A stretch of DNA of 27,070 nt from NCBI RefSeq assembly GCF_000003605.2, contig NW_003150756.1, positions 85,205 through 112,274 of the forward strand. The letters run 5' to 3'. The notes beneath the pieces are model-generated. The model was not told the origin of the DNA, searched no databases, and saw only the letters and a program-made list of their open reading frames with translations. The position numbers and the translations under genes are program-made. The number at the start of each line of letters is the position of its first letter. Position 1 is the stretch's first letter. The stretch is from Saccoglossus kowalevskii (lineage: Eukaryota; Hemichordata; Enteropneusta; Harrimaniidae). Positions 1 through 24,880 of this stretch are shown one piece after another.

Positions 1-727
1 TTTTTTCGACTTCTTCTTGAAAACTACAAGCCTGAATGCTTTGATACTTGGTGTATATGTACCTTGGGTAGACCTCTCTCAGATTTGTTCATTTCATGAT
101 ATCTTCAATTCTCTAATTTTGGTGAATATTTTTGTCATTTTTAGTAAAAAGTGGTATTTTCAACTTCTTGTTAAAAACCGCAAGTCCAATTGCTTTGATA
201 TTACATATATAGGTACTACATGTGGACCTCTCTCAGATTTGTTCATTTTGTAATGATATCTTTAATTCTCTAATTTTGGTGATTATTTTTGTCATTTTTG
301 GTAAAAAGTGATATTTTCGACTTCTTGTTGAAAACCGCAAGTCCAATTGCTTTGATATTACATATATAGGTACTACATGTGGACCTCTCTCAGATTTGTT
401 CATTTTGTAATGATATCTTTAATTCTCTAATTTTGGTGATTATTTTTGTCATTTTTGGTAAAAAGTGATATTTTCGACTTCTTGTTGAAAACCGCAAGTC
501 CAATTGCTTTGATATTACATATATAGGTACTACATGTGGACCTCTCTCAGATTTGTTCATTTTGTGATGATATCTTTAATTCTCTAATTTTGGTGAATAT
601 TTCTGTCATTTTTGGTGAAAAGTGATATTTTTGAATTCTTGTTGAAAACAGCAAGTCCCATTGCATTGATACTATGCATATTGTTCATTTTCTAATGATA
701 TCTTCCGTTCTTTAATTGAAATGTGCA
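1..727 (+). repeat. 157-bp tandem repeat array (copy 1, runs off left edge)
   Basis: The marker ctctaatttt recurs at 111, 268, 425 and 582, an exact spacing of 157 bases. The middle units are nearly identical; the first visible unit and the last one (about 590-727) have diverged. Each unit holds a gtaaaaagtgatatttt block, a ccgcaagtccaattgctttg block and a ggacctctctcagatttgt block. The degenerate last unit ends at the same point (gaaatgtgca) as a second array at 16391-17040 on the opposite strand. The array is therefore probably part of a mobile element with a fixed end rather than a simple satellite. Short frames inside it are not credible genes. Confidence 0.93.
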
Positions 728-1311: not shown

Positions 1312-1330
1312 TCTATTCATTTTGTTACAG

Positions 1331-4300
1331 AATTTCCAGCACCAGAAGGCATAACAGAAGAAAAAGAAGCTATCTGTTTTCAGCGCACACATTGTGCATT
1401 GAAATCTATCATTCATATTGCACCAATGTAAGTTGTTTTGTTGATATAAATAAACATAATGGCATGTAATGTTAACAAATGGTTTCATGGTTTGATAATT
1501 TGAAATAATCACTGACTACCCACCCCGCCCCATCTTGTGGACCCCAGTGATATTTTTACTGATAACAAAATATTGCAAGTTTTCATGAACAATTTTTTTG
1601 GAAATATTAAAAATTACTTATTATTAAATTATTTCATTAGTAGAATTGCTATAATCTCACAGTTTCATATCTTGATAGTGCAGGTGTCGGATATGATACT
1701 GAACAAATTCCAGTATATGTAACAGAATCTAAACTGATAAAATACAGGACTGTACCTATATCTCATACTCACTGTGGAAATCATTTTTCAGATATTTTAT
1801 GAGCAAATTTATGTTTTACAGGACACCAACTATACTACCAGAAACATGTTCTGAATGCTTTCCTTACATGAAGAAAGAAACGCACATACAGGTGATCATT
1901 ACTACCATCCATTATTTGATATTTTGTGTATATTTAAAGAGGAAGCTGTAAATCCCAGGGATTGTACCATGGAATCTTGGGATACCAATGTTTACAATGT
2001 TTTCTCTATTCATCTGTTTTTCGTTGTAATTTTAATCCAGTTGTAAATTTTTTTTTGAGATTAGGCTTAACCAAAATGGCTTACTGATTTCATACGTTTG
2101 TTCTGAATAGGAATGCTATGTGAAAAACTTACTTGAACTCATCGGATATCTTCCTAATATGCGGGCTTCAATACTGCAACTGATAGTAGAAAAGATGACA
2201 AAAATCGATGTAAGTAACTCTTAGTAATTGTCTGCAATGATGTCTGTCAGCATCTATCATCTTTGAGAAAGTGTCTTACAACAGGAAAGCATCTGTGTTT
2301 ATTCCAACATTGTATGTGTTTGGCTACAGGTCCATGCCCCAAAACATGAATTAAACCAAATTGCTGCTGAGGAGGAGGAAGATGAAGATGAGGAAGACGA
2401 CTTGATGGAGGAAGATATGCAGTTTGATATGGTATGTCACATGATAAGATGACAGCTGGGCTGGATTTTAACTTGCCCATAACATTAGATGATGAGAAAT
2501 TATGCAAGGGCACATGTTTGTCCTTGTTTCTTGTGATTTCATTTACTCAAGCGATTCCAACTCAAGCAACAAAACCCATGCTAATTTAGCTGTCTGTTCT
2601 TATCAGGATGAGTTAGACGGAATAGAAAATGATAAAGATACTGCAAAAGAGAAAGACTGTACAGGAGATGAGGCAGAGAATGGTGGACCAATGACACATG
2701 AGATGGCTGATAGATTAGATGTGATGATGAATTTATTATTTAAATACACATTCAGTGTATGCCATCCACAAGGTACTGTGAACAAAATATTGCTTTGACT
2801 TAATTGAAACATAGACCAAAAAGTTCTGAACTCATTGTGAGGAGATGCATGATGTGAATCACACTACCACAGTGTTCTCCCCAGGCCTTTCAAGCACTGC
2901 GGGCCCGCGTCGCTTAGACAAACAGCCGCGTCGCTTTTGTTTCGCCCACGATCCTTGAAATCCTGCCCGCGATGCTTATTCACTTGTATTGTTTACAAGT
3001 GTCAGCTTCGTCTAGCACATCTTTAAAGCAATAACATGTATTGATCGAAAGGTAACCCCGCCTTTGTACATAGTTAGCCTTACAAAAACAGTGATAAAAA
3101 CGGAAGTCTACAAGAAGAAGTCTATCAAGGGTGCGGAGCTGGCAAACCCAAAATACTAGGGTAGTAATAATTTGCCCATTGCGTCGGGATGGTCTATCCC
3201 GAGTTGCTGCACTGCGGTTAATTGCGTTTTTACTACTTCATCGCCAGTGACACTGATTACCAAGAATTAAAAAAACAAGTGAAATTAAGTCGCATTGGAA
3301 AGAAAACTGTAAATAAATCGAAGTAAAAATTATTCAACTGCAGACGAGACGGACGAAGAAAAAACGAACCCTGACCTCTAGAAATACCTTATTCATAGTG
3401 TCATTACCGAGGAACGCCACCCTAAGGCAACGTAATGCATGTAGTGACATCACAACCGATGCATGCTGGGTTACAACGGAGATTTTGATTGAGCTAACAA
3501 AGATGGCGGCGCAGAGTACATGTTTTTCCGCGATGTTTAAAAACAACATTTCGTTGGCGATTTTGATGTAATTTCTACGTCAATCATCAATGAATCGTTT
3601 TAATTAAGCAAACATTCTAAGTTTGTGTATTTTTAAACAAAAAAGTCAGGGGCCGATGATCGCAACCGCAGTGGTGAATACCCGTTCAACGCAATGCTGA
3701 CAATGTTACGGTGATCGTAGCGTTACACAAATAATAGATAGATCAATGAAAAATCGCTGACTTTAGTTTTGAAATGCCGTTGAAAAAAAAAAATGTCATT
3801 ATTGATTTATTAATTTCTTCATATTTTGATAACCCGCAATCTTGCAGATTTTACAAATTTAACAGACAAATAAAACACAATAAATTTAAATGTAATAAAA
3901 TATGAGATATGTATCTTTTCTTTATTGCAGTTACAATGTTTGTTGGGGAAACTAATTATTATGCAAACAAAATTATGCAAATAAGATGTATTATTATGTA
4001 AATTAGCCACGATGCTTGGCTTAGAGTCTGGGGAGAACACTGCTACCAGCTGTAATAAATAAACACCCTAAAAGGGCAAGCTGTGAATACATTTATTCTA
4101 TAAAAAAAATTTTTTTAGATATTAAAATAATTTGGTCTCGTTAAAAGCTGGGGATCATCACACATCAGCATGCATCTGAATTTGAAGAAATTTGACCTGC
4201 ATTGTATATGTTGTGGGACCCATGTGAGCACAACTCAGTTTGAAATAAGCATCATTTTTCAATGAATGAAAATAAATGTCAGTATCTATGCATTATCGAA

Positions 4301-4824
4301 TGTCAAAATAGCAAAGTCATTCTTCTCTATAATTGTCATATTTTATTAATTATTGTAACCTGCTTTAATTTCAAGAGAGAAATTTTTTGTGATTCTGTGA
4401 AAATCATGGAATTTTGTCGGAGTTAAACTTCTAGCAGCGAAAAATCTAGTTCACATGTATGAGCTTCTTGAATGAGAATGTCAATCTGAATGAGAACTAC
4501 AAACACGACCACCCAGAATTTAAATCCAACTACATGTACCACTGTTATGCATCTTTGGTATACATTTGCCTATTTCAGGTATTTTCAAAATGGAGCCAAC
4601 AAGGTTGCTGTGGAAACAGTTTCTTGGTATATTCAACAAGATTATTTTACCCACCCATGGTTCCTGTCACATTCAGTATATTATGTTTTATATGTGTAGT
4701 TTTAATCAGGTAAATTTTATTTTATTATTATACTTGTATGGTGTCACAAAGCTGGTGATATTTGCAGTACACTTACCCAAGCAGAAAAGATGATAATGTA
4801 TTTGCCACTTATCTATAATAGATG

Positions 4825-4889
<65 letters not shown>

Positions 4890-5367
4890 GTGTTTATTGT
4901 ATGCTGGATCATTGAAAAACTACTTATTTTTATTATAGATACACATCTATATTTTGTGTAAGTGCATACAATAATAGAATATTACTCCCTAATGGAATAT
5001 TAAAGTACTCTTTTAGGAATTCGATAGGAATGTCTTACTTACTAATAAAGTCCTCATTTGTTTCAGTAGACAGTGTTTATAAAATATCTTATTAACTTAT
5101 TTATCATGGAGTCATAATTATGTTTAATAGTTGTTCTTCTAACAGGTTATAAAATTATACCAAAACAATAAAGTAGTAATGCGCATCGCCAATCATAGCA
5201 TGAAAGCCAAGTACATGTACAACATTCAGGAAAACATTCAGTGATTGATTTTTTTTTAGTCATTGAGAAATACATTTACTGATTAGTTGGTTTTAGTGGT
5301 CGAGAAATACTTACATTGATTGTCTTTTTTAATGGGAGAAATACATTGTACACTAATACTAATAACT

Positions 5368-5447
<80 letters not shown>

Positions 5448-8400
5448 CAAATACTGATGCAATTATTATTATCATTATATTAATTTGACTAATCTTTCTG
5501 TTTTATATCCAGAATATAGCTGATGCATTCATTGACTTTCTGTGGAAAAAGATTCAGAATCCAGATACTGCTGCCATCCTTAGACAGTCATCAGCTTCCT
5601 TCATTTCCAGTCTCCTGTCCAGAGCAAAATTTATTCCCCTTTCGTAAGTAAATTTGATTGATTTTGTTTTCTAAAACTAAACAAGAATTGACGAATTTGT
5701 TTACAGAAATTATATTGTGTTATATTCAAAATTTTGTATTTGGTATTCTGTTAGTACAAACAAAAAAACACTTTGAATAGAATAATTTTGTTTCTAAAGT
5801 TCATTATATATGTTATATTTTGTATAAAATATATTTTAATTGTGAGTGAATGTCCAAGCTGAATGTGTTAATAGTACTCATACCTGTGTTCTCCCCAAGT
5901 ATCTTTGTGCACCCAACCTTACCATGTTTTTAAAGAAACAACAGCAGTTAGTATTATGCGACTAAAGTGAACTAGATATTATTATGTAAATTAAGTTACA
6001 TTATGTATATTATTATGCAAATGAAAATAATTGAGAGAGAACACTGTTTTGTTACCTCTAGAAGATAATGAAATTAATACATTATTGCAACACGGTAAAT
6101 AAAATAGCACAATTTATTTAGGACAATATTAAATATGTTGACCAATAAAAACATTATGGCAAGTTATTTGGCCAATACTTAAATAACAAAGAATTGTATT
6201 TCATGTTTCCTGTGAGTTATCAAGTTCAAAAAATTGATGTTTAAACATGAACAGTCAGGGAATGTCAACTTGGATGACATAAGTTCATGTTTTAGGCTGC
6301 ATCTGCTTCTTTCTTTTTGGCCTAATATGTTTATCTTGTTTCTTACAGTACTGTGAAGGCAATGTTTGATGTATTAATACCCTGGATTCATAAATACATT
6401 GATAGACAAGAAGGAAGTAGTAGATCATACCCTGATGTTAATTTACATGGACCATTCTATTCTGTGTGCCAGGTAGGTTGCACCTCAAAATAACAGTATC
6501 CAGCATTGTCTTATTTTTCATTGTCAAAAATGGAATGAAGTAACAATTCATTCAACAAGTTTTTCTTTCTTTATAGGCAGCATTTTATATTTTTGTATTT
6601 CGACACAAGCAACTCTTGGAAACCAACAAAGGACTGAACTATGTAAGAAGTCTGAATTTCGACAGAATCGTAACTTGTCGGTTGAATCCTTTGAAAGTAT
6701 GCTTACCAACTGTAGTCAATATGTTTGCAACTATTACAAGGTATGTTTCGTCGCATTTCTTGGTTGTCTCATTTTACAATTCACGAAGAAAAGCAGGCAT
6801 GGTGTTCATGTACATGTATGTTAAACTAATTATTGGTATCATGCAATGTACTCACAATTTCATGATGTTACAAGAACAATTGATTGGTACAGATATCATG
6901 CACACCTTATACTTTGCCCAGTATTATGCAGTTGAAAACGTATCATATTGTAAACCCATCAGTGTGCCCTCTACACCGACATGCCACTGATGCACAAAAA
7001 TATCCTACAACTAGTTATGCTATTTCACTGGCGCACTATTGATGCAAGAAAAAAATTATACATTTATATAATGATTTTGAACTACTTTATATCATACCAG
7101 AGGTTATATAGTTTGTAATTTAGTGAAATGAAATTCACAGTTTATAATCAATAGAAGTATAAAAACAAAGGAAACCATTTTTGTTTGTGACTATACAGTT
7201 CTATATAATTATATTTTTCTTTTAAAAACTGACCACTCCAGCAGTCAACAAACTGACTACTGTCAAATGAATAATTTTCACTGGGTTTAAATTTCGCTGA
7301 TTTACCATTTCAGGCATATTTAGTAGGTTTTAAATTCACGGTTTTATCATTTAGATAATGCGTTCTATGCTAAATTTTACATATTCACTGGGTTTTAATT
7401 TAGCGCATTTTCCAGTCAGCGAAATAAGCATAATTAAAATCCAGTGAATAATTAATCCTTTTACAGTATGCTTGATTTTTGGAATTCCAATTGTCCCGTT
7501 AGAAGGGCACACTGAAACCAACAATTATGCATATCAAGTTGCCAGTCAGTGTGTTAAAGCCATACATCATGTTGAAATCTATTTGCTATCTCTGTTTATA
7601 GAATGCATCAGATAGTGTATTGTTACACTGTTATTGAACGCAACAACCGAACACTACTTCCAGTGGTAACACAGAGCCATAATACCAATGTTTTAACCAA
7701 TGTGAATCCCTTGGACTCGTACTTCCCGTTTGATCCATACCTACTCAGCAGGTAAGCAGCTCACTGTCTCCAGTATAACATTACCAATGGGATACGTGAA
7801 CATTCAACTCATAAAACAATATGGTCAAAATTTGAATGTTGTTTCAAGTGTAAGAAAATTTATACACACGCGTATTTAAATTTGTTTGTATCTAGTTTAA
7901 AGTAATTTTTCAAGACATATACTGTCTAAAAAATTTCCCTTGAATATGATGATCATAATTACAATCTTTCTACCACATGTGCAGCACTTGTATTCACCTT
8001 ATACTCTTAGTGATATTTTGTTTCAAAATTTAACGAAAAAAAACAATAAGTATACTAGTACCTGTTGTCTTGGTCACAGGCAATCTCAAGATTTTTTAAC
8101 TAATTTTCTTAATTCATTGACAGATCAAAAAAGTATATTAAACCCATCTACCAAGAATGGGAAGGTACATTACCGGAAGAACACCCAAAGATGATGTGGG
8201 GGGAATGCCCATAATAATTTATTGGGTTGTGTTTGCCCCCCCCCCCCCCAAGGTTGCACATCCTGGCATTTTCAGGGTTACCCGTATCATAACACCAATA
8301 ATTAAAACTCGGAGAGAAGTATATGGCCCCGTAATCACCTTTCCTTAATTGACCACAGGAGGGCGTTGCTGTTAAATGATTTCTTCAATTTTTCCTGCAA

Positions 8401-8860
8401 CTTAATAAGATGTGTTGAATCTGAGTTAACTTTATTGGTCTTATATTTGAAGAATTATGGTTATGTTAGCTTTGCTGATGGGTTTGAGAACAAAATTTTA
8501 ACTTGTACATGGAATTCATTTGTCACTTTTAGTCTGTTACTCAACACATATACCGTATATACATATCCTGAAAGCTTGGCTATGTTTTAAAAACATACAC
8601 TGCTTAAGAGAATCTTATGTGTGAATCATATTATATTTGTTTGCATACCTTGTATGGTGAGCCTATTCAATGGTGTTTTGCAAATCGATTTTTAAATGTT
8701 ATTTATTTCCTGACAGGATGAAGATGACGAGTTCTTGGGGTATGGTTCATCACCAGAAAGTCAGCTACCTCTGGGTATCACACCAACCAGTGCACATGGC
8801 GTATCACCAGGGTTTAAACATACTGGAATAATGACACATATCATGCATCCATTATCCTGA
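1331..8860 (+). CDS. RRN3: RRN3 / TIF-IA, RNA polymerase I transcription initiation factor (5' end outside window)
   Basis: RRN3 binds Pol I and recruits it to the rDNA promoter through SL1/core factor in the nucleolus. Coding exons read in the + direction: 1331-1427, 1822-1891, 2111-2209, 2330-2431, 2607-2772, 4579-4709, 5513-5643, 6349-6472, 6577-6740, 7602-7751, 8124-~8195 and 8717-8860 (stop TGA). All have AG acceptors, and all but the 8124 exon have a clear GT donor and a matching phase. Diagnostic blocks resembling human RRN3 are LPTHGSCHIQYIMFYMCSF, SRAKFIPL, LHGPFYSVCQAAFYIFVFRH, SLNFDRIV, LNPLKVCLP, CYTVIERNNR and YFPFDPYLL. A very acidic stretch (2393-2431 and 2607-2660) corresponds to the disordered loop within the HEAT-repeat fold. 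About 480 residues are visible against about 650 in human, so the first ~170-200 are missing to the left. The junction between the last two exons is unresolved. Identification is firm; exon ends come from reading, not transcripts. Confidence 0.95.
2864..4048. mobile_element. Non-autonomous DNA transposon with 15-bp inverted ends and 6-bp target duplication
   Basis: The element occupies 2870-4042 (1173 bp) in the RRN3 intron. It starts with CAGTGTTCTCCCCAG and ends with the exact reverse complement. Both sides are flanked by ctacca (2864-2869 and 4043-4048), a 6-bp target duplication. The ends carry GC-rich stretches (gcgggcccgcgtcgctt near 2900) in otherwise AT-rich DNA, and the right subterminal region repeats an attatgcaaat-like motif. 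The longest frame inside is 71 codons and resembles no transposase, so the element needs enzymes in trans. The superfamily cannot be assigned from these ends alone. Confidence 0.88.
4049..4578 (+). other. RRN3 intron sequence, no feature seen
   Basis: This is AT-rich intron between the transposon insertion and the exon acceptor at 4577-4578. Both strands were scanned; I saw no exon, RNA gene or repeat. Overlapping short frames from 4459 only run into the real exon at 4579. Confidence 0.6.
4829..4886. repeat. (TA)29 microsatellite
   Basis: This is an uninterrupted 58-base TA run in the RRN3 intron following exon 4579-4709. Reading it as coding gives only Ile-Tyr repeats, so that frame is spurious. 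Confidence 0.98.
5373..5444. repeat. (AT)36 microsatellite
   Basis: A 72-base pure AT run lies in the same RRN3 intron as the 4829 tract, about 70 bases before the acceptor of exon 5513. It is perfect alternating AT, so it can form a hairpin or cruciform and its length is probably polymorphic. Confidence 0.98.
5884..6046. mobile_element. Small MITE related to the 2870-4042 transposon
   Basis: The left end reads ctgtgttctccccaag and the right end, reversed, reads cagtgttctctc, close to the ends of the larger element at 2870. The subterminal motifs attattatgtaaatta and attattatgcaaat are also shared. No clear target duplication flanks it, and the ends have mutated, so this is probably an old internally deleted copy of about 163 bp within an RRN3 intron. 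Confidence 0.65.
6741..7601 (+). other. RRN3 intron with an imperfect inverted repeat at about 7271-7455
   Basis: This is the intron between exons 6577-6740 and 7602-7751. The sequence cactgggtttaaatttcgc at about 7280 returns in inverted, imperfect form around 7415-7450 (agcgaaataagc ... ttaaaatccagtg), and a third related unit lies near 7385. This looks like a palindromic MITE remnant. The 124-codon frame beginning at 6616 only reads through the true exon into this intron, so its tail is not coding. Confidence 0.6.
7752..8123 (+). other. RRN3 intron, no feature seen
   Basis: AT-rich intron between exons 7602-7751 and 8124. No repeat, RNA gene or extra exon was recognised. Confidence 0.55.
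8236..8249. repeat. Poly-C (C14) tract
   Basis: Fourteen consecutive C lie just after the problematic RRN3 exon, and a G6 run lies nearby at 8198-8203. Homopolymers like these are prone to length error in assemblies, which matters for the reading frame here. The tract plus the following aag could also act as a pyrimidine tract and acceptor. Confidence 0.95.
8250..8716 (+). other. RRN3 intron (provisional), no confirmed exon
   Basis: A clear acceptor (ttcctgacag) precedes the last RRN3 exon at 8717. Two frames here (8157-8348 and 8366-8590) show no similarity to RRN3. Because the flanking exons do not join in phase, a missed small exon may lie in this stretch, but I could not identify one. 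Confidence 0.5.
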
Positions 8861-11419: not shown

Positions 11420-14400
11420 TTATGGATTAACTTTAGTCCAAATGCCGGTACTGTCTTTTTCATATACTCTTGGTTTTTTGTCTGGGAAGAGTGTAATTTC
11501 TGGATGAGGGTTTTCTATCACATGTTGTATTGTATTCCTCATGTCCTTGACAAAATCTGGTGGTTCCACTTGTGGTGATGTAGACAAGTACTATGGGATA
11601 GGAATAAATAAATATGATCTACAGTAACTCCCACAATCATAGTTGTATGCTAGCAATCGTGTTAATGTCCAATCAGATATTTGAGAACACTAGTGGTCAA
11701 TGCAAAAATTGCACTTTCTAATAGATGGGCTGTATTAGACATTACTAAAAAAGGAGAAAGCTTAGAAAGAACTCTCGTGTGCGGAAAGTATTGAAGACAC
11801 ATTAAAAATTAATTCAAAATTACTTATACTTGAGATATTGAGGGAATAGCTGAAAACTAATTATGTAAATCAGGTAACTGATATGAACAGATTTGAGTGT
11901 AAAACTAATAAGGCTTGTGTAATATCTATGTACCAAGTTTCATTGAAATGTGATTAGAATTGATATGAACAAATTTCAACCCAAAATTAATCGGGCCTGT
12001 CTATTGTCCTAGAGCATTTATGTACCAAATTTTATGATCAGTGTTAATTATGTTAATTAGGTGATTAATAAGCATAAATATTGACCAAAAACTAATTGGG
12101 TCTCTGCATAGTCCTTGGTTCAATGAAATGTGATGATGAGTACTTTTTAAAAGTTTCATTAAAATCCAATTAATGGTTCTTTATATATCAGTGGAACATT
12201 CATGGGAAAAAAATTATTATGCAAATTAGGTAATTAATATCCACAATTATTTACCCTAAAACTAATTGGGTCTTTGCATAGTCCTAGAAGATCTATGTAG
12301 CATATTTCTATGAGACTTGATGATCAGCACTTTAGTTATCAAGCGAAAAGCTGAAAATTAATTATACTAATAAGGTGATTAATATGCACAAATATTTACC
12401 CCAAAACTAGTCGGGTCTCTGCACAGTCCTTAAGTAACTATGTACCAAGTTTCATTGAAATGTGATGATTACTACTTGAAATATCAAAAGCTGAAAATTA
12501 ATTAATAATGCAAATTAGGTAATTAATATGTACTGATATTACCCTAAAAACTATCAGGTCTGTGCAGTGTCCTATGACATCTATGTACGAAGCTTTATTG
12601 AAATGTGATGATTACTATTTGAAATATCAAAAGCTGAAAATTAATTAATTATGCAAAGATATTACCCTAAAAACTATCAGGTCTGTGCAGTGTCCTATGA
12701 CATATATGTACTAAGTTTTATTGAAATGTGATGATTACTACTTGAGATATCAGTGGAAAAGCCAAACATTGACTAATCATGCAAATTAGGTAATTAATAT
12801 TGCACAGATTTTTACCTAAAACTAATCAAATATGCGCTTTAGTTCAAAGCATTTATGTGCCAAGTTTCATCAAAATCCAATGAGTGGTTCTTTAGATATC
12901 AGTGGAACAGTCATGGAACAGCTAAGAATCAGCTAATTATTATGCATGGATTTTTACCAAAACCTAATCAAATCTGCGCATTGGCCCAGAGCATCTATGC
13001 ACTAAGTTTTTCGCACACAGGAGTCAAAAAAGAAATGTTTTAAACTGGAATAGAAATGCTTGGATGCCTACTCGTCTTATGTGTATACCAGCCATGATTG
13101 GTGATCATTTGTTATGCTCTTTTGTTTTGAACAGTGGTATGTGAAAAGTATTATGCTAATTTGTCACAAGTGAAAATTTGTTAATTTGACATGTTCTCAA
13201 CTACTTTTTTGTGGATTAACCGTCTTATGGGTTTGCAATGCTTGACCATAAGGTCGCTTGTTTTGAACAATTGATAGTAAAATCCTAAAATCATTGTTGA
13301 AGTAAGTTTAATATGGTGGGCTGATTCGAGATAGTCAACAAATGGTTTCTTCACTGCTATTGTAGGATCTGAATAGCATTAATGATATGCATGACTAGGA
13401 TCAACCAAAAATTGTGAAGCTTTTATTTATCTGGGACAAGCTTTGTCCCAAAAAAATTTGGTTAGTTGCAAGACTGACTTATAGAGGGACTGTGGTGAAA
13501 TGCACAATGATGCATTAAAAACCTTGTCTCACCTTCAGAATTATATTATCAGGTTGTTGTAACCACATGTGTGCATGAGGCCATGGCTTATACTCAAATG
13601 GTCCAATCTGAAGTTGATGTTTACTGCAGTTATATACATTCTTCATCTGAAACAGATAAGTTGTATTTTAGGATAATATAGATTGTTTTATGTAGATTGT
13701 AAACTGACGAGATCTTGCAACTTGCATATGCTCAAATGAAATTGCATTTCTCTTGGTAATATATCTTTCTATTTTCTGGCTATAACCCTGATTCACAGAA
13801 ATATCAACTTACGGCTTGACTGCCAAGCATGTTGCCAGCTGATCTACAGTAGATATCTGGGCCTTTATCTGCAAAGGATGCTGGGTAAATGTCGCCTGTC
13901 TGTACATCAGTAGCTGGATGGGTAGAAAAATTAAATTAAATCTGATGATGTTGTGGATCAACACTTTGTAAAACCATGGAAGGTAAAAAGAGAGGAGATA
14001 GGACGACTTTTAATCCGATTTATTTCTTTTGTTTCAAGCTGACAATATCGCCTTATTGCTATTGTTTATATTTCATTTTACCAGTCACCATTACTGCTTA
14101 TTTACTCAGCGAAATGGGATGAACTCACATTTTTCGTGACTGAAAAAAAATCACCATCACGAGTGGCACTGCGCATCAGCGAAGAGACGAAAGAGTGTAT
14201 GCGCAGAAAGGTTCATGTGACGTCATAGGTCATTGACAAGGCCTGACACCGGAAACGAAACACTCGTCAGTTGTTTTCCAGCGTGAGCGGATAATACGTT
14301 GCTCGGTCTCTGCACGTAAACTTGTTCCATTTTTAAAGACGAAAAAACTACACGCCCGGTTTTTTCCCCGAAGTATTTAAAAAGCTCAAGTGGGACTTTA

Positions 14401-17400
14401 TGTCAGGCACTTTCGAGTAAGCTTTGTCTTGTTTGTATGCGGTGATATGCGACGGTGAAAAAAACGATTTTTTTTTCGCAATAGTTTCGCCATTTTGTTA
14501 CCGCCTCGACACAACAAATATACTTATAAATACGTTGTGTGTGTGGTCATATGGAAGGTGGTGCGATGTTTGAACCATGGTGTGACCACGAACAGTTATT
14601 GTTGTGTCAGTTTTCTGATATGAGCATATAAATACATATTTTTCATTTCATTTTAACGATTTTTACAGTTATTGTCCGCAATTGAAATACTCAAATAGGG
14701 AAAGATGTTGGGTTATGGTTATGTTGCTGTCTTGCTTGTTGTCATGTTTGAATTGAGCCGACCCGAATATTAATTATTCACGTAATCGCATTACGGAATT
14801 GTTTACCAAGTAAAATTATCGAAACAATCATTGAACAAGGGAGAACAATAGCGTCCTATCTCCTCTCTTTTTACCTTCCATGGTAAAACAGACTAGTGGA
14901 CTAGTCTATATTGATGCAATTATGAGAACCTAAAGAGAGGGTGCCCTCTGGTGGTTGGTATTGAAATGACTGTTTTTTTGAGAATTTTGGTAATGTATTT
15001 TGTTAAAAAAGCTTGTCTGACTGACTTATCATATATAGTGATACTACAAAATTAGGGAAATATGTAAAATGGCAAATCAATGAATTCTAAAATGAACGTC
15101 ATGTGATCAAGGGTGTAAATTATGTATGGGTATTGTCCAAAAAGTGTACATTGCAATGTTCAATTCTTTCTCTGATTTCATCCAAAAATTCTCCAAACAT
15201 CTGAAGTTTGAAATTTTATAATTAAGTTAATTTTGAAATATATTTTGAGGGACTATGCATGTTATGGAAGGTAACAACAATTGACAATTACAGCAAGGCG
15301 TAAATAAGATTGATGCTTGTACCTATCTTGTTTATCTGTATAGAAATTTTGTTTGTGTAGACTCTAATCAATGGGGCATTCCATTCATTATATGTTCTGT
15401 ATAGTGAATGAAACATTACACAGATTATAGGCTAGTTGTGATTTCTGTAAACATGAGTCATGTGATATTACCGGTATATACTAACCTACTCCATATATAA
15501 CAGGCCAATGTACACCATTTTTTACAACATCATTTAAATCTAAAAAAAACATATCAATAAATTAAATTTGTGTTTTCCACCAAGATATATACATTTAGCA
15601 GGATTCATTTAAAACATGGGTCTTTGTGATAGACAGGGTACACAGTCATATCTACACAGCCATCAGTGTCGTAAAGCACGAGTTCTTATTTCGTCAGGCA
15701 CCAAAACTAGCAAATATTGTTTTTTTTTATTAAAATCTGCAAGTTTAATTATTCCAACTAAATGTGCAATAAATATAATCATGGTGTTGCATAGGTAGTA
15801 TTCTTGCTAGTAAGTTTTCATTCTTATCCACTGCTCAGTATTTTTTTATGGACATCGAAAAAGACTTGTTTGTCGCTAGTGAGTGGTGGTGGTCATCAAA
15901 TGAACTAAACTATGTGTAAAAAACAAAATAAATTGACAACATTTTTACTTCTTGCCATTTAGAAATTCAGTTATAAAATGACATGGTTTAAAAGTCTCAC
16001 ACTTGTCACTTCATAACCATTTATAAATGTCAAAAAGTTTGATATATTTCTACCTGTGATACATGCAGTCATTAAATGCAGTTCTTCTGCTTGTTTGTGA
16101 AATGCATCTGTAATAAGACAAATATAACAGAATAAATATGGAACATTTTCTACAAATAATTTTTAAAATATTATTTGCTTAAAATTATTTTAGTATAACT
16201 TGTTAATTCCATAAACATGAAATAAAATAAATATGTACATGTATAGGTCCTTTCTGTGCAACAAAAGATGTGACAATGGAGCTTGAACCAACCAGTCACA
16301 TATTTTTGAAAAAAACAATCAAGCTAAATTATAAGGAACATGATATGACAACAGCACTCTGATTGTAAGACCCCCTTCCTCCCTCAGTCTTGCACATTTC
16401 AATAAAAGAACAGAAGATATCATTAGAAAATATGTATAATATCAAAGCAATGGGACTTGCTGTTTTCAACAAGAATTCAAAAATATCACTTTTCACCAAA
16501 AATGACAAAAATAATCATCAAAATTAGATATTTGAAGATATCACCACGAAATTAACAAATCTGAAAGAGGTCCACATGTAGTACAAAATGTACCTATATA
16601 TGTAATATAAAAACAATCGGACTTGCGGTTTTTAACAAGAAGTCGAAAATATCACTTTTTATCAAAAATTACAGAAATATTCACCAAAATTAGAGAATTA
16701 AAGATATCATCACAAAATAAACAAATCTAAGAGAGGTCCACATGTAGTACCTATATATGTAATATCAAAGCAATTGGACTTTCCGTTTTTAACAAGAAGT
16801 CAAAAATATCACTTTTTACCAAAAATGACAAAAATATTCACCAAAATTAGAGAATTAAAAATATCATCACAAAATGAACAAATCTGAGAGAGGTTCACAT
16901 TTAGTACGTACCGGTATATATGTAATATCAAAGCAATTGAACTTGCGGTTTTTAACAAGAAGTTGAAAATATCACTTTTTACCAAAAATGAAAAAAATAT
17001 TCACCAAAATTAGAGAATTGAAAATATCATTACAATTTTTAAACGTAATTTTTTTTTTTTTTTCTAATTTAAACTACAACAAATCAATTGCCCCAACTGC
17101 GTCAGTCTATTTGGTCATTTTAGCATGACGCTGAAGAATTTTACCCTGGCGGCGCGATATTTAGCTTGGCGGCATATGATTTTACCATGGCGGCCCCGCC
17201 CTACCAAATCAATGCGTGGAGAACATTGTATTTTTTTGGAAGCTTGATACCAAATGAAAATGACACGAGAGATCTCCTGCAGGCTGCATGAATGCATATC
17301 CATATACTTAATTAATACAAGTGTCATAATTTATGTAAATCACTCACTCACCCAGTAACTCAATAGAAAGATTCTCAGAACATTTTTTGTCATCTGTAAA

Positions 17401-20400
17401 TCCTCCAATGATGTGTAATTCAAAACTAAAGGGAAATATCAAGACACATGCAATTTATTTGACTTACTGTAATAAATGTATTATTTAAAATGCATACAAA
17501 GGAAGTTCATAGAGTACTTTCGATCAATGTGAAATTATTAAATCAGTTTCTGCGGTGTGGCACATAATGTTGTCTGATTCATTACTGTATTTTCACAATA
17601 TTTCTTGGCTTTTGTAATTATCTGAACATTTATCATACAAGAAATAGATATCTGCCATTTCCTATTGATTAAGCTGCAACAATATTTTGCAGTACCGGTA
17701 GTCAATCCTCACCATGTAATAATTTACTCATTTTTGGAAAAGAACCAATGCCAAAATTTGAATTAGCAAGATGACATTTTGTGGAATGTTTTTTTGCTGC
17801 AGGTATGGGCAGCTTCATTTGCTACTGTGGATATTCTAGTTATGTGTGTGCTAATAATGTGATAAACACATAGAAGTATGTAAAGCTTGCACCAGGTTTT
17901 ATTTGGTTCTTAATTCTCTTGATATAAGATGAAACTGAATGCACTGCCTAAGGATCTTGCATGATAAACCAAAGTGTAGATGTAAAAAACTAAGCACCGC
18001 TGCCCTCATAAAACTGGTATAAGAGTCCTCACTCACAGTCCTTCTCTTCCCTTTGACAAATCACTGACTTCCTTTACCATGGATCTCACACCATTCTCTA
18101 TACCAGAGCCATCACAGTGTGATAAGCACACAGCACCACTTCCTACAATGACAACATGCCCATTGAACTCAAACCATCCCTTTACATATTTTAAAATAGT
18201 CAGTTATTTATTTAAATGACACTTATTGCAATGGTTGATTCCTCTAGTAGACAGTTCACCAAACTTCTTTAGTAGATAATACACTACACTACACTACACA
18301 GACTTATTTGTGCACACCACCAGTTCCCTCTTTTCATCACAAATTCACAAAATAGTCTGTCTCATTTATAGTCTGCAACAAAAATAGGTACATTTTTTTG
18401 AGTAAAAACTGAAAATAGACTCAAATTTTGTCTGTTGGCTCCAAAATTACGGTATTTCCAGATATATTGAAAGAATATACGAAAAATCTAGGTGAAAAGG
18501 TTAACCGTGTTGGGTGCTTTGTGGGATATTCCAATATCCCCTTCAGTCAAATGTAAACAAATTAAAAACTAATTGTCTGATTAGTTCAGACACTAGTTAA
18601 ATCACAAGTCAGAAAGGAAACTTAAGTTGCAGATATTCTTGTTTTTAATATGTGTTTACAAATTCATTGAAGGGTGTGTAGTAGTACTACAGCCTCACAA
18701 ATACTACTGTATGTGCATACCTACCTGTATGTCGTAAAACTGTCATGTGACAAGTGGTTGCATCTTCAGTTCCCAAAACACGTACAGCGGCTGTGGGATT
18801 ATCAAGAATCCTGCATAAGTGTACAAATACTGACTATGTATGCGAGTTACTAAATGTGAATATCTTTTCAAGGCAGCATAATGTTGATAGCAACACACAT
18901 GCACTTTAGCTTACATGCACCTCTATTGGAGGGAGATAGGAACCATTATTTGGTCCATTCTACAGTAATAGGTGATTTTCCGTACAATTGCGAGATCTTG
19001 CAAGATGCATGAAAGACGCGCGTCGAACGTCTGCCGCAAAAATCAAACGATTTGATTTTGAACTAGAATTTCTTTATTTCGTAGCTTACATTGACCGGCC
19101 GATCTTCGACAGAGGAATATTGCTTCCGAATACCCTTACTTAATCGAAATTGCCTATCATCAAATGTGGACAGCACATTATTAAGCATGGAAATGTCCCC
19201 GAAATACTTTTGCGTTTGTCGAATCCCACGCGATGTTTGACGCGACTACGACGCTATGACCTTTGTTTGTCCTGTTTTTACGTTCGATTTCACGCATAAC
19301 GCGTGATTCTCGCAGTGTACGGAAAATGGTCTATTGAGAGAATGACATATGTCATCTTTTCAAACAAATAACTAAACTGCCATAATTTTTACAATCACAC
19401 TTACCATCTTGTGGTGTAGTAGTAGCAAACTCGCGTTGATAAATATACAACAATCCTTCTGGTTGGCACTTCTTTACTTTTTTATTACAAAGTTTTGCTG
19501 CTGACTCCTGTAAGTAATATACATACATGCAGTATAATAATAATGTGAATTCTGTGGATAACTTGACACTTAGGGAAATGGTCAATATCATGAATGCCAA
19601 ATGAACAAGTTGTCAAACTTGTGAAACATTTTTCAAAACCATGACAACAAGTTTAACAATTTGTTAAAACTGTACTGTTTCACTATATTTTCCACAAACT
19701 TTTATACTGCAGTCAATGGCAGTGTTGGGAGGATAGAATCAATTCAATATTGCATCAGATTCATAATATGTAAACTGCAATCAAAGAAAGCTTAGAAAAA
19801 ACTCCCATGTGCTGAGAGTATTGGAGACACATTAAATATAATTCAAAATTACTTGTCAGAGATAGTGATAGTGATGGAAAAGCCAAAAACTAATAATGCA
19901 AATCAGAAAATTAATATGAACACCCAAAAACACAGGTAACATATTTATTAACTTCACTCAAAATTACTAAATACTATCAAGTTCACATAATAGTGACAGC
20001 ATTAGGTTGGTATGTACAAGCTGCTAAAACAATTAGTACATGATTTTGATTTGTGATTCCTTTTAACATAGATCTATATTAACCTAAAGCATATTTCATT
20101 ATACTGGTAGACTAAAAATCAATATAATTCAGTATTCATAGCAATTTACAAACCTTTTTAACACCATTATTCGTGCCGAAACATTTTGCATATTTTACGC
20201 ATACTTCCTGGACTCTAATGGTAATGAGACAGGCTTCAATCAAACTACATGAAGTGATGAATAGGGCAAAGGTAAGTTTTGTCAAAGTGACATTCATCTT
20301 TGGGTCATTTCTGAGCTAGGTGAATTAATGTTTCTGTTGATGGTTCAAGTCTACTCAAAGCTCATATAGAATACAATTTGATGGAGGTCCCTTGCATCCA

Positions 20401-23066
20401 CTTTGAATCTCTCTCATATCATACAATATGACACAAATTTTCACACATTTTATTAGTACCTCCAATGTAAATATATGTAACTGAACAGATTTTAAATAAA
20501 ACTTCATTTAATTAAATAATAAATTGTGGTCATATTTTAAAAATATAAAAAAGTTTATCTAAGTTTAACACTGAAATAAAAAATTGTAGTGTAATTACTG
20601 TTTATAATATATGTGAGAATCCAAATATTCATTTTTTGTATAGATAATTGAAAAATAAAAAATTAATGTGATAACAAACATATATCATGTAAAAATTTCA
20701 AACCAAATTTGAAAACTACCGTGATTGATATACAATGTATATATTAACTTCAATCAAGTACATGTATTTATTACACTCATAAAATCCAATCAAGGAAAAC
20801 AAAACTTACATATATCTGAAACACAACAGATTTTAATGGTAAATAATTATTCTTTTTACACTATATTTTTGTTATAAAGCAACTCATTTAAATAAAGCCC
20901 ATAATAAAGTTTCTAATGACCTCTGGTGCAGCAGAGTCAAAACCAGCAATATCCAGCATCCCTGTATCATCAGGATCTGCAATAGTGAAACCTGTAGATG
21001 TCATACCGCATACGATTAATTTAGCGTCTATGTTCATCTTTTCACGATACTGCCGTAGGGCTTCAACAGGTTGTACATTTCCACACCATGTTTCACAATC
21101 AGTGTACACAATAAACACGTCAATGGGAATATTGTTTTTTAAGGCATGTATCATTGGTAAAGAACAGTTTGTTGCACCCATGGGAATACGTTTCATTTCA
21201 TTTATCACTTCAGTCAACTTCATGCTAGCATTTATTTTCAATGGAACCATGGTATGAGAAAAGGCTACAGTATGAGAGTTTTTTTCAGTTCTCACAGTGA
21301 CCATAGACATGGCAGCCGATGCACAGTATGCAGACACGTTTGAAGCACCATGAATGTTACAGCTCATTGATCCACTGACATCTAAAGCTAACATGAAACG
21401 TTTATCAGTTGGTTCTACATTCTTGAATGAAGCATAAAATGCATCATCTAATGCATTCATTATCAACTTATTCGGCTGCCAATTCAATTTTCCTTTATCA
21501 CCATGTCCTGATTGGTAGGTCTTCAAAGCCAGAAGAACATTAAAAGGGTGGATACGTGCTTTTTTGAGTGACTCTTCGCATTGCAATTGTTCACACACCA
21601 TTGAGACTTCGTCACTCAATTCGTCACTCAAAAGCTCAATTGATGTCATCTTTCCAAGGTTCCTTATCATTGCTGTCATCGGCATTTCTCTCAACAAGGC
21701 CTGCCAAATCAATTTTGAGCTGAGAAATTGTGTTGGTACATGTTCTCTCACAAGTCTATGTTTCTCAATAAGCTGCACTACTTTCTCTTCTTCATGGGCC
21801 TCCTTTGCCTCCTCCACAGCTGTGAGGAATTCAAGTACTTGGGCAGTCTCTTTCTCTTCTTTCTCATTCTCAGTATCCATGTCTGCTTCTTCATCTATGG
21901 CAAAATCTTCCCTAGCGACTTTTAAACCTTTGATTATGTATTTCAACACAGCAGCAGTGGGTTTCTTGGTTGCCTTAATATGAGCTAATCGCAGTACATC
22001 TCTGTGTGTCCAACCATTCCGCTGTCGGTATTTTGTCACAGCCAAGGCAAGCTGTTTACCGCTTTTCCTTTTATACCAATCCTGTACAGCCCGTCGGTGT
22101 GCTCTCCCCCATCCAGTACCTCTGCTCAGTTTCTCGCACAGCTCTAAAAATGCAAAAAGATGAGTGGGTATTCGGCAGACATCATCTAGTACTTTATATG
22201 CAGCTTGTTTCGTCTTCAAATCTTTGTCTCTAGCGCAGATTGCCAGGGCAAACAAAATGGGATTTTGTTTCGCCGTTCGCCCTTCAACACTGAAGGTTTT
22301 GATCTCGTTCACCACTTTCTCACCTTCGCCGTTCATTATCATTCTTCTAATGCACTGAGCATTCTCCAGACCTAGTTCCTTCTCCCCTACGTAATATGTA
22401 CCGCCTTCAGAGCCCAGGCACATAAATCTGCGAAGACGGTTGATGTCGGACACTTCCCAAACATACCCGCCTGCGTTGTTTATCACCTGGTCTTCACGCA
22501 TCGGTTCAGACTGCGGTGTCCCTACCACATAGCTCAATATGGAATTCAATACTCCGGCCATTTCCAATTTCTACTCCTGCAGTTGATAATATTTCACGGA
22601 GCAGATGTTTACAGCAAGACTCGCTGCTCTCGAAGCTGTAGACCGTGGAGACGGGTATTCGGCCCTCGTCGTCGTCGTTTATTAAGTTTTCTTGCTGACT
22701 CAAGCACTTTTTATGGGTAACTATGTGCGTCATTTTTATAAATAGATTTTAACAAAAGTCCTACTAGGTCAGCAAAATTAAAAAATACGCTATATTCTTA
22801 CAACGGATATTGCACGACGATTTTGAAATGTGTCAAAGGAGTGTTATTTCGACTTGCAAAAAATGTGCCAATTCGACTTTTTCTACTCCGTACATGTCAT
22901 GGTACGCATATAAGATACGATGTCATATAAATTACCGAAGTGAAAGCTGCATCGTTGCTAGCTAAAATAATTCGAGACCACATACCTTAAAATGAGAGTA
23001 TTTCTTCACAAAATCAGCGACTGATGTGACCTGTTCGTATGTTGTGCCGCCCACAAGCAGAGGCAT
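11420..23066 (-). CDS. NTAN1: NTAN1, protein N-terminal asparagine amidohydrolase (ten coding exons, complete)
   Basis: NTAN1 deamidates N-terminal Asn to Asp, making proteins substrates of the Arg/N-degron pathway. Exons in coding order on the - strand: 23066-22986, 19507-19405, 18790-18725, 18142-18037, 17425-17352, 16107-16054, 15539-15486, 13913-13813, 13646-13533 and 11590-11420. All have GT donors and AG acceptors with matching phases, giving 307 residues plus stop (human has 310). Family blocks in order are N-terminal MPLLV, PEGLLYIYQREFATT, VLGTEDATTCHMTVLRHTG, CLSHCDGSG, LHIIGGFTDD, LNDVVKNGVHWPVIYGVA, TGDIYPASFADKGPD, LQIGPFEYKPWPHAHMWL, LSTSPQVEPPDFV and the terminal IWTKVNP. The DATTC cysteine falls at residue 75, the nucleophile position of human NTAN1. 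Exon 1 uses ATG at 23066-23064. Intron 1 (22985-19508) contains RO60 on the same strand. Identification is firm; exon ends are unconfirmed by RNA. Confidence 0.95.
11756..13010. repeat. Irregular tandem repeat in the last NTAN1 intron
   Basis: About eight degenerate units with spacing of roughly 110-190 bases fill the intron. Each has a block like aagctgaaaattaatta, then atgcaaattaggtaattaat, then ctaatcgggtctgtgcatagtcc, then atgtaccaagtttcattgaa and atgtgatgattactactt. The left edge, aaagcttagaaagaactc, recurs with the following 100 bases at 19787-19935, so this is a dispersed element with an internal expanded array. The 62-codon frame at 12855 reads through repeat and is not a gene. Confidence 0.85.
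13969..14888. mobile_element. 910-bp DNA transposon with perfect 32-bp inverted ends and TAAAA duplication
   Basis: The element spans 13974-14883 in the NTAN1 intron between exons 13913-13813 and 15539-15486. It starts CCATGGAAGGTAAAAAGAGA and its outer 32 bases are repeated perfectly in inverted orientation at the right end. TAAAA flanks both ends (13969-13973 and 14884-14888), a 5-bp target duplication. The interior has no transposase-like frame. The absence of any mismatch between the ends suggests a fairly recent insertion. CCATGG is its own reverse complement. Confidence 0.92.
14889..16053 (-). other. NTAN1 introns around exon 15539-15486, no other feature seen
   Basis: Apart from the 54-base exon at 15486-15539, I saw only AT-rich intron. 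The 60-codon + strand frame at 15616-15798 begins next to that exon and shows no recognisable domain; it is treated as chance. Confidence 0.5.
16391..17040 (-). repeat. 157-bp tandem repeat array, copy 2, inverted relative to copy 1
   Basis: This is the reverse complement of the 1-727 family, with about four units. The marker tagagaatt (tagatattt in the first unit) falls at 16525, 16691, 16848 and 17011; one spacing is 157 bases, and two are longer because of small insertions. The unit nearest 16391 carries the same divergent block as the last unit of copy 1 (caatgggacttgctgttttc when read on +) and stops at the same terminal sequence. It lies in an NTAN1 intron. A poly-T run follows at about 17050. 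Confidence 0.9.
17426..18724 (-). other. NTAN1 introns around exon 18142-18037, with a short ACACT microsatellite
   Basis: Besides the exon at 18037-18142, I saw only AT-rich intron. A short run of four ACACT-like units lies at 18281-18300. No RNA gene or additional exon was recognised on either strand. Confidence 0.55.
18969..19333. mobile_element. 361-bp MITE with inverted ends and TA flanks
   Basis: The element at 18971-19331 has ends ggtgattttccgtaca and, reversed from the right, gaccattttccgtaca, followed by related tgcgagat/tgcgagaat blocks. TA flanks both sides, as expected for mariner-like insertion. The interior is much richer in CpG (acgcgcgtcgaacg, tgacgcgactacgacg) than the surrounding intron. 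No coding frame was seen. Confidence 0.75.
19787..19935. repeat. Short copy of the 11756-13010 repeat family
   Basis: The opening aaagcttagaaaaaactc, the following gagtattggagacacatta and the agccaaaaactaataatgcaaatcag block match the left part of the 11756 array in the same order and orientation. It lacks the expanded tandem units, so it is a single-unit or truncated copy in NTAN1 intron 1. Confidence 0.75.
20767..20772 (-). promoter_or_regulatory. Possible polyadenylation signal for RO60
   Basis: AATAAA is read on the - strand about 115 bases downstream of the RO60 stop codon. In AT-rich DNA such hexamers arise by chance, so support is positional only. If used, a same-sense NTAN1 pre-mRNA would also cross this site inside intron 1. 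Confidence 0.4.
20888..22561 (-). CDS. RO60: RO60 (TROVE2, SS-A/Ro 60-kDa autoantigen), intronless, nested in NTAN1 intron 1
   Basis: Ro60 is an RNA-binding ring protein that holds Y RNAs on its outer face and threads misfolded noncoding RNA ends through its central hole. One frame of 557 codons starts at ATG 22561-22559 and ends with TAA 20890-20888. The frame is open two codons further upstream, but only to a TTG, so this Met (MAGVLNS) is the start. The TROVE domain covers about residues 18-375, with conserved GRTAKQNPILFALA, GTGWGRAHRRAVQDWY, NGWTHRDVLRLAH, HRLVREHVPTQ and KKARIHPFNVLLAL. A von Willebrand A-like domain follows, with a MIDAS formed by D394-x-S396-x-S398 (DVSGSMS), T464 (GATNCS) and D488 (YTDCET). 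An acidic helical segment (about 223-263) corresponds to a less conserved part of human Ro60. The length is close to human (538). All key residues are intact, so the gene looks functional; no poly-A tail or direct repeats survive to prove retroposition. Confidence 0.97.
   Translation of the reverse strand: MAGVLNSILSYVVGTPQSEPMREDQVINNAGGYVWEVSDINRLRRFMCLGSEGGTYYVGEKELGLENAQCIRRMIMNGEGEKVVNEIKTFSVEGRTAKQNPILFALAICARDKDLKTKQAAYKVLDDVCRIPTHLFAFLELCEKLSRGTGWGRAHRRAVQDWYKRKSGKQLALAVTKYRQRNGWTHRDVLRLAHIKATKKPTAAVLKYIIKGLKVAREDFAIDEEADMDTENEKEEKETAQVLEFLTAVEEAKEAHEEEKVVQLIEKHRLVREHVPTQFLSSKLIWQALLREMPMTAMIRNLGKMTSIELLSDELSDEVSMVCEQLQCEESLKKARIHPFNVLLALKTYQSGHGDKGKLNWQPNKLIMNALDDAFYASFKNVEPTDKRFMLALDVSGSMSCNIHGASNVSAYCASAAMSMVTVRTEKNSHTVAFSHTMVPLKINASMKLTEVINEMKRIPMGATNCSLPMIHALKNNIPIDVFIVYTDCETWCGNVQPVEALRQYREKMNIDAKLIVCGMTSTGFTIADPDDTGMLDIAGFDSAAPEVIRNFIMGFI
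22506..22733 (-). other. Possible upstream ORF overlapping the RO60 start
   Basis: A 75-codon ATG-initiated frame starts 172 bases upstream of the RO60 ATG and ends 53 bases inside the RO60 coding region, in a different frame. It has no recognisable domain. If the RO60 transcript begins upstream of 22733, this frame would tend to reduce RO60 translation. If transcription starts from the nearby TATA-like site, it would not be in the mRNA. Chance overlap is equally likely. Confidence 0.3.
22733..22740 (-). promoter_or_regulatory. TATA-like sequence upstream of RO60
   Basis: TATAAAAA reads on the - strand about 172-179 bases upstream of the RO60 ATG and overlaps the A of the upstream frame's ATG. 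A start site about 30 bases further on would give a 5' leader of about 140 bases. TATA-like strings are common in such AT-rich DNA. Confidence 0.3.
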
Positions 23067-23289: not shown

Positions 23290-24880
23290 AGCATAAAGGC
23301 GTATTAAAGAATGTCTTTTATTCATCAGATGTATACTACAAGAACATACAACAAAGGTAATATATATGTAAAATAATGACAGAAACAATTTACAAATTAA
23401 CTAAAACTAATAAAATACATAATAGTTAAGAGAGAAAGAAAAACAGACAATTTTAAAAGCATAAAAACACGTATAATAAAAAGGCAGTTATGAGGCAGCT
23501 GGAAATCCTTTATTAAACTGTCTTCCCTCATAGTAAAACACAACAACTCTTTTAATATTTGTCTATCTTTTAGTTTTAGTATATTTATCAAATTGTCATA
23601 GTCAGAGCAATTGTCCTGGAGTATGTTGTTTTTGTCGAAGAGGTCATCTCTCTCTTTTTTGTAATATTTGCACAGTGACTGTAGAAGGAAGTGTGTCTCA
23701 TTTTCGATCTGATCATTGTTGCATATTAAGCATTTTGATCAGATCAATATTTTCCATTTGCAGTGTATGTGCACTTAGATTCTTCTTAGCTTGGTCGTCG
23801 CCGACGGACCTGTGTTTTGGATTAATAGTTTCTAGATAATTTTCAAAGGTGAAATCTTGTTTTATTTCCTATATTTTAGTAGTTCATTTTTTGGTTTCCG
23901 CCTTTGTTGTCATTATATAGTGATTCCTTGGCATTTGTTTGATAGAGAAATTGCATTTTTTCTTTAAATCTAATGATTAGATTGTCATGCGGTTATCGCT
24001 ATGTTTAATAATTTGAGTAGACGTTTAATACTAGATTTCATCAGTTTTTACGCATAGTCTGTAACATTCATTGACCAGTGTATTTTCCGGCTTATTAGCA
24101 ATTTTCAGCCAATATTTAAACATTTGGGTCAGACTTGCTAAGCGTAGTGGGTAGCGAACCAGTTCCATTTTAATAGGCAACCAATGTTTGTGTCGTTACA
24201 GCCAACTTTTAGAAGAAATTTACAGAATTTCAGGTGGAGTTTTTCTGCTGGTGTTGTGCAGTTTGATAGGTTTGACGATTGTTTGATGTTATCACATGAC
24301 CAATAAAGCAGGAATGGGTTGACCACTGCGTCAAACATCTTTAGATATGCTTTTACCGGGATATTTGTTTCTCAGACTTAATATAATTGCTGTTTTAGAC
24401 TGAATAGGGCTTTCATTGTTTTTAAAGTCAATTTGGGCTTTGTGAAGTTTTCCTGTGAAATTAATTGTAATACCCAGATATGTATAAAAAGAAACTTTTT
24501 CAAGCTCTTTCTTATTTACATAAAATTTAAACTTGTTTAGACTTGTCCCCAATTTATTGAAAATGATTGTTTTTGATTTTGATATGTATATCTCTAGTTG
24601 CCATTTTTGCAATAAATCTCAAGTGAGTTTAATGCATTTAATATCCCAGTGTGTGACAGCAAAAGAAGATCATCTGCGTATAAAAGACATCACAACTGAC
24701 TGTCCAGTAGAGTTGGTGGGTCATTTTGTGATAGATCAATGTGTCTTTTAATGTCGTTTATGTATATATTGAATAGCAATGGACTTAATCCACCACCTTG
24801 TCTTATACCTTTCTGGATTGGAAATAGCTTAGTTAGGCCTTCTTTTACTTTTACACATCCTGTATTCGCAAATATACAGT
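23290..24880 (-). pseudogene. Decayed LINE (non-LTR retrotransposon) ORF2 remnant, 5'-truncated
   Basis: Reading the - strand from 24880 down, broken frames show reverse-transcriptase motifs: IRQGGGLSPLLFNIYINDI near 24790 (motif B), then, after a stop and frame change, YADDLLLL near 24665 (catalytic motif). Next come SKSKTIIFNKLG near 24560 and FYTYLGITIN near 24490, then FDAVVNPFLLYWSCD near 24325. EKLHLKFCKFLLKV near 24235 and FKYWLKIANKP near 24105 follow. A Cys/His-like tail, CLICNNDQIENETHFLLQS, lies near 23720. An AATAAA-like signal on - near 23320 may mark the 3' end. The order matches the RT-to-C-terminal part of Jockey/CR1/I-type LINEs. Several frameshifts and stops make it inactive, and the endonuclease half is absent. 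Confidence 0.88.

What the first reader, a model, noticed from the sequence alone, without database searches (positions are those of the whole stretch)
20888..22561. Intact, intronless RO60 nested on the same strand inside NTAN1 intron 1
The sequence shows a complete 557-codon RO60 frame between NTAN1 exon 1 (23066-22986) and exon 2 (19507-19405). Vertebrate RO60 genes have several coding introns and lie elsewhere. An intronless but fully conserved copy inside another gene's intron suggests retroposition followed by long selection, or replacement of the ancestral gene. Same-strand nesting raises the question of how NTAN1 pre-mRNA avoids the RO60 polyadenylation site. Basis: structure is seen; the family comparison is known; the origin is inferred.
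Basis: partly seen in the sequence, partly recalled or inferred. Interest (0 to 1): 0.78.

Follow-up and report, generated by a model that had tools for sequence, protein, structure and literature searches.

The report
Intronless RO60 nested in NTAN1 intron
In an animal genome that looks like an acorn worm's, a complete intron-free copy of the RNA quality-control gene RO60 sits inside the first intron of another gene, NTAN1; it is the only RO60 we found there and is most likely a retrocopied gene that took over from the original, an unusual home for this gene but a known kind of event.

Summary
Window 22561-20888 (- strand) is one open frame of 557 codons encoding a full RO60 (TROVE plus vWA; 57% identical to human, 56% to Xenopus). 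It lies in the 3,478-base first intron of an intact ten-exon NTAN1 on the same strand; the window has no N. Three searches of the own assembly (572 Mb) found one Ro60 locus, this one; the only other TROVE gene found is intron-bearing and TEP1-like, not RO60. As controls, the tool found 7 of NTAN1's 10 exons (3 at E<=0.001) and 3 places of the TEP1-like gene. The best reading is a solitary ("orphaned") retrogene. Limits: 49.5% of the own-genome bases I took out were N, the 5' half of UCHL5 (human neighbour of RO60, recalled) lies in such a gap, and CDC73 was not found, so a hidden parent is not excluded. No poly(A) remnant or target-site duplication was found, and no RNA or related animal genome could be examined. 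The mitochondrial code fits a Saccoglossus-like acorn worm. Same-strand nesting is the minority arrangement but ordinary (76 of 296 simple human nested pairs). New member of a known kind; moderate interest.

The parts
20888..22561 (-). RO60 coding sequence, one exon, 557 codons plus stop
22986..23066 (-). NTAN1 exon 1 (coding part, ATG to GTATGT donor)
19508..22985 (-). NTAN1 intron 1, 3,478 bases, host of RO60
19405..19507 (-). NTAN1 exon 2
   Evidence: family match
18725..18790 (-). NTAN1 exon 3
   Evidence: family match
18037..18142 (-). NTAN1 exon 4
   Evidence: family match
17352..17425 (-). NTAN1 exon 5
   Evidence: family match
16054..16107 (-). NTAN1 exon 6
   Evidence: not among the places
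15486..15539 (-). NTAN1 exon 7
   Evidence: not among the places
13813..13913 (-). NTAN1 exon 8
   Evidence: family match
13533..13646 (-). NTAN1 exon 9
   Evidence: family match
11420..11590 (-). NTAN1 exon 10 with stop
   Evidence: family match
20767..20772 (-). AATAAA, candidate RO60 poly(A) signal, 116 bases after the stop; an ATTAAA lies at 20837
   Evidence: sequence pattern only; use not shown
22562..22985 (-). 424 bases between NTAN1 exon 1 and the RO60 start codon, candidate RO60 promoter and 5' UTR; CpG observed/expected 1.27, 1.49 and 1.10 in bins 23100-22801, 22900-22601 and 22700-22401, window mean 0.55; TATAAAA at 22740-22734
   Evidence: only the 1.49 bin exceeds the window's 95th percentile (1.415); promoter not shown

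Best explanation
This is a functional RO60 gene that arose when a spliced RO60 mRNA was reverse-transcribed and inserted into intron 1 of NTAN1, so that its start codon lies 0.4 kb below NTAN1 exon 1. The intron-bearing parent was later lost (or is hidden in assembly gaps), leaving the retrogene as the animal's RO60. It probably makes its own mRNA from a promoter in the 424 bases below NTAN1 exon 1 and ends it near the AATAAA 116 bases after its stop; NTAN1 transcripts read through it and remove it with intron 1. Shown: complete frame, nesting, intact host gene, one Ro60 locus found in the assembly. Inferred: retroposition, loss of the parent, promoter, poly(A) use, expression.
For: Complete single-exon frame with both Ro60 domains. 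57%/56% identity to human/Xenopus and grouping with them at 100/100 in a 10-row tree with Deinococcus Rsr, five other bacterial loci and one viral contig, so an animal RO60 and not a recent bacterial acquisition. Positions recalled as RNA-contacting in Xenopus Ro60 (K170, R174, H187) and a DVSGS motif in the vWA domain are kept. Own-genome searches with the protein (E<=0.001), TROVE (E<=10) and vWA_Ro60 (E<=10) give this single Ro60 locus. Controls: the tool found 7 places, matching 7 of 10 exons, of spliced NTAN1 at E<=1, 3 of them at E<=0.001, and 3 places (2 over the family cut-off) of a spliced TROVE gene only 24% identical to this RO60. A nested position in a conserved gene's intron is what insertion of a retrocopy gives and what intron loss in place does not.
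Against: No poly(A) remnant (the only run of 7 or more A in intron 1 is inside the frame) and no target-site duplication: the longest word shared by the flanks is 9 bases, reached in 172 of 200 shuffles. 123,585 of 249,589 bases taken by place from the own genome are N (25 stretches chosen around genes, not at random), and the 5' half of UCHL5 lies in a gap. CDC73_C gave no match although animals have CDC73, so genes can be missed. The control missed 3 of 10 NTAN1 exons. No relatives and no RNA.
Confidence: 0.72

Rival explanations
1. A retrocopy that coexists with an intron-bearing parental RO60 lying in unassembled sequence.
For: 49.5% of the bases taken by place are N; the flank of UCHL5, where the human gene lies (recalled), is a 13-kb gap, C2039:31560-44585; CDC73_C not found.
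Against: No exon-sized Ro60 fragment elsewhere in three searches, two of them at E<=10, although a spliced gene spans kilobases and most would leave some exons outside gaps; UCHL5 itself, partly in a gap, was still found.
Confidence: 0.18
2. RO60 lost its introns or was intronless at an ancestral place in the NTAN1 intron, shared by a wider group of animals, so the nesting is old and the vertebrate locus is the derived one.
For: Not excluded by any search: no related animal genome could be searched. No insertion scars.
Against: Loss of every intron in place plus a nested position needs two unusual events; recalled intron-bearing RO60 in vertebrates.
Confidence: 0.07
3. Assembly misjoin or contamination placed RO60 inside the intron.
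For: Draft assembly with many gaps; no reads to check.
Against: No N in the 27-kb window; the intron closes correctly between GT and AG around the gene and NTAN1 is complete; closest by sequence to animal Ro60; GC3 similar to NTAN1, 0.40 against 0.37.
Confidence: 0.03

Closest known systems
Retrogene replacement / orphaned retrogene, as amphioxus SYCP1 (PMC5803294; passages seen)
   Same: Single coding exon of a gene that is multi-exonic in most animals, no parental copy found, invertebrate deuterostome.
   Different: SYCP1 lies beside the ParaHox cluster, not inside an intron; its parent's loss rests on several amphioxus species, here on one gappy assembly.
Nested protein-coding genes of animals (PMC8467205; passages, one section)
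   Same: An intronless internal gene in an intron of a multi-exon gene.
   Different: Same strand, the minority arrangement (220 of 296 human and 193 of 248 mouse simple pairs are opposite-strand); the internal gene is a widely conserved one rather than a young tissue-specific duplicate.
Ro60 / Rsr protein family
   Same: Full-length TROVE plus vWA protein, 57% to human, 56% to Xenopus, 37% to Deinococcus.
   Different: 16 more residues at the N-terminus than the human sequence as printed by HMMER, whose first 6 residues were not shown, and 10 extra residues in an acidic stretch near 221-241; gene architecture.

Membership tests
RO60 (TROVE/vWA protein) | TROVE and Ro60 vWA domains | tested here: met
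   PF05731 196.2 bits, PF25045 254.5 bits
RO60 (TROVE/vWA protein) | Groups with animal Ro60 rather than bacterial Rsr | tested here: met
   100/100 with human and Xenopus, 10 rows; NCBIfam's bacterial Rsr equivalog scores 476 bits, under its cut-off of 900
RO60 (TROVE/vWA protein) | Binds Y RNA and misfolded RNA | not testable with these tools
   K177, R181, H194 match Xenopus K170, R174, H187 (their role is recalled). A Y_RNA search of the genome found none, but scored 52 of 46,627 candidates
Retrogene | Lacks the introns of its parent family | tested here: inconclusive
   Single exon shown; introns in other animals' RO60 are recalled, not tested
Retrogene | Poly(A) remnant and target-site duplication | tested here: not met
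   None found; such scars are commonly lost in old copies (general knowledge)
Retrogene replacement | No parental copy in the genome | tested here: inconclusive
   None in the assembled part, controls, but 49.5% N in stretches taken
Nested gene | Whole gene inside an intron of another intact gene | tested here: met
   NTAN1 intron 1, NTAN1 complete at 307 aa
Nested gene | Both genes expressed | not testable with these tools
   No RNA data

The most novel reading that the evidence does not exclude
A core RNA-surveillance gene, whose human product is reported to bind and restrain retroelement transcripts (PMC11277228, passages), was itself copied by retroposition, replaced its parent, and now lives on the promoter region and intron of NTAN1 on the same strand, so that the output of the two genes is coupled through the choice between RO60's poly(A) site and splicing of NTAN1 intron 1.
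Probability: 0.15. Interest if true: 0.55.

Novelty: new member of a known kind. Interest (0 to 1): 0.36.

Why it matters
If confirmed, RO60 joins the small set of conserved genes whose only copy is a retrogene, here placed on the same strand inside another gene. That gives a dated natural test of how a nested same-strand pair manages splicing against intronic polyadenylation, and of whether a housekeeping RNA-binding gene keeps its expression after leaving its old promoter. The protein itself looks ordinary.

Tried and rejected
Bacterial or viral origin: the closest prokaryotic and viral-contig relatives found are 30-46% identical, below the 56-57% to vertebrates, and the tree groups the gene with human and Xenopus; rejected as a recent origin. 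Those scans used six exact peptide patterns and reach close relatives only.

A second RO60 at C2018: the TROVE match proved to be an intron-bearing gene 24% identical to RO60, with no Ro60 chain among its PDB matches at E<=1; I call it TEP1-like from recalled TEP1 sequence. The ancestral RO60 site: the Peptidase_C12 hit on C3160 was BAP1-like, by recall; UCHL5 was found on C2039 but its 5' flank is a gap; CDC73_C gave nothing; GLRX2 was not searched.

A partial repeat of NTAN1 exon 2 just above RO60 (22701-22677): 2 of 1000 shuffles of the 424-base flank and 6 of 300 shuffles of the whole intron score as high; found after looking, so not used.

Retroposition scars: none. Y RNA: none at the Rfam thresholds in the window, 4 miRNA-like chance hits at E<=5, inconclusive in the genome. 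U1 protection of NTAN1 from the RO60 poly(A) site: a GTAAGT lies at 20809, 37 bases above the AATAAA, but no chance level was computed, so it is only a thought. Copies of the intron elsewhere in the genome: the DNA search did not complete.

In print: searches showed no paper on a nested or intronless RO60 among the entries listed (6 to 20 each, NTAN1 with TROVE2, matched 0 papers). Only the held open-licence library was searched.

Full report
What is there. The minus strand of the window carries one open frame at 22561-20888, 557 codons, with the TROVE and Ro60 vWA domains. Human RO60, Xenopus Ro60 and Deinococcus Rsr are the three PDB sequences matched at E<=0.001, with 653, 643 and 333 bits. 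In a MAFFT alignment it is 57% identical to human, 56% to Xenopus and 37% to Deinococcus, and a 10-row tree joins it to human and Xenopus at 100/100. Against human it differs by a longer N-terminus, about ten residues in an acidic stretch and single- to few-residue indels; nothing has the size of a retained intron. The longest open frame in 300 shuffles of the intron was 179 codons against 560.

The host. Ten exons from 23066 to 11420 with GT/AG borders splice into a 307-aa protein. The hand-spliced version (7 residues too many) matches N_Asn_amidohyd at 352.8 bits and the solved NTAN1 structures. RO60 lies in intron 1 (3,478 bases) on the same strand; 424 bases separate NTAN1 exon 1 from the RO60 start codon. 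No N occurs in the window. On the plus strand, tail to tail with NTAN1, lies RRN3: 4 of 4 open pieces given to Pfam match PF05327. NTAN1 and RRN3 are also neighbours in human (recalled), which would make the NTAN1 site an old one.

Is it the only RO60? The window is G000:C4067:85205-112274 of a 572,110,611-base assembly in 4,830 contigs. The protein search gave 1 match from 2 candidates, this one. TROVE at E<=10 gave 5 rows: 2 in this gene and 3 in a gene on C2018. The vWA_Ro60 profile at E<=10 gave 1, this one. The C2018 gene is spread over about 5 kb, is 24% identical to this RO60 where aligned, and matched no Ro60 chain at E<=1; I take it for TEP1 from memory. As a control, the NTAN1 family search returned 7 places at E<=1, all in this window, matching exons 2, 3, 4, 5, 8, 9 and 10; 3 of the 7 were at E<=0.001. 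So spliced genes are seen where the sequence is assembled. Against this, 123,585 of 249,589 bases in the 25 stretches I took by place were N; these were chosen around genes and the window's flanks, not at random. CDC73_C gave nothing, and UCHL5 was found only in its 3' half, the rest lying in a 13-kb gap. A hidden parent copy stays possible.

Which animal. COX1 lies on contig C4830. In ND1, COX1 and COX2, judged at positions I recall as conserved, ATA reads Ile, AAA Lys, AGA Ser and TGA Trp, and AGG is not used; COX1 is inverted relative to ND1 and COX2. Table 3 of PMC3121625 gives this code (Ile, Lys, AGG absent, AGA Ser) for Saccoglossus kowalevskii among the deuterostomes listed, and the text notes its derived gene order (passages). 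So the window is probably from an enteropneust hemichordate near Saccoglossus; this is an inference from three genes.

How it probably works. A spliced RO60 mRNA was reverse-transcribed and landed in NTAN1 intron 1. No poly(A) run or duplicated target site remains, as expected of an old event but no proof of one. CpG observed/expected is about 1.0 to 1.5 from NTAN1 exon 1 to the first third of RO60, against a window mean of 0.55; only one bin passes the window's 95th percentile, and another such bin lies elsewhere at 19500-19201. This is compatible with a shared promoter zone and does not show one. An AATAAA lies 116 bases after the stop. NTAN1 transcripts must pass it; same-strand nesting is the minority but common enough, 76 of 296 in human and 55 of 248 in mouse.

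Novelty. Retrogene replacement is documented in an invertebrate deuterostome, amphioxus SYCP1 (PMC5803294, passages), and intronless internal genes are the usual nested genes (PMC8467205, passages). The combination for RO60 was not seen in the papers listed. I rate it a new member of a known kind with moderate interest.

Noticed in passing
window 23350-24850, - strand: Degraded non-LTR retrotransposon remnant (reverse transcriptase piece, RVT_1 25.4 bits, E 1.3e-5, under the family cut-off of 29.6) ending a few hundred bases upstream of NTAN1 exon 1.
   Followed up: partly
window 22677-22701 against 19481-19507, - strand: The first 27 bases of NTAN1 exon 2 have a partial look-alike just upstream of the RO60 start codon, with a 3-base gap; 2 of 1000 and 6 of 300 shuffles reach the score.
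   Followed up: partly
window about 1330-8860, + strand: RRN3 gene, convergent with NTAN1; 4 of 4 pieces tested match PF05327.
   Followed up: partly
L001 4812-6614 and L002 (viral contigs): Viral contig with phage-like genes (names by eye) encoding a Ro60 46% identical to the window's, placed next to the animal Ro60s at 99/97 in a 10-row tree.
   Followed up: no
L044 (C2018:30001-39589): Intron-bearing TROVE gene, TEP1-like by recall, next to a long repetitive frame rich in GNTLDEL units.
   Followed up: partly
L046 (C4830): Mitochondrial contig with COX1 inverted between ND1 and COX2 and a Saccoglossus-like code.
   Followed up: partly
window 1-700 and 16400-17100: Similar AT-rich repeat units of roughly 160-170 bases occur in both places (seen by eye).
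   Followed up: no
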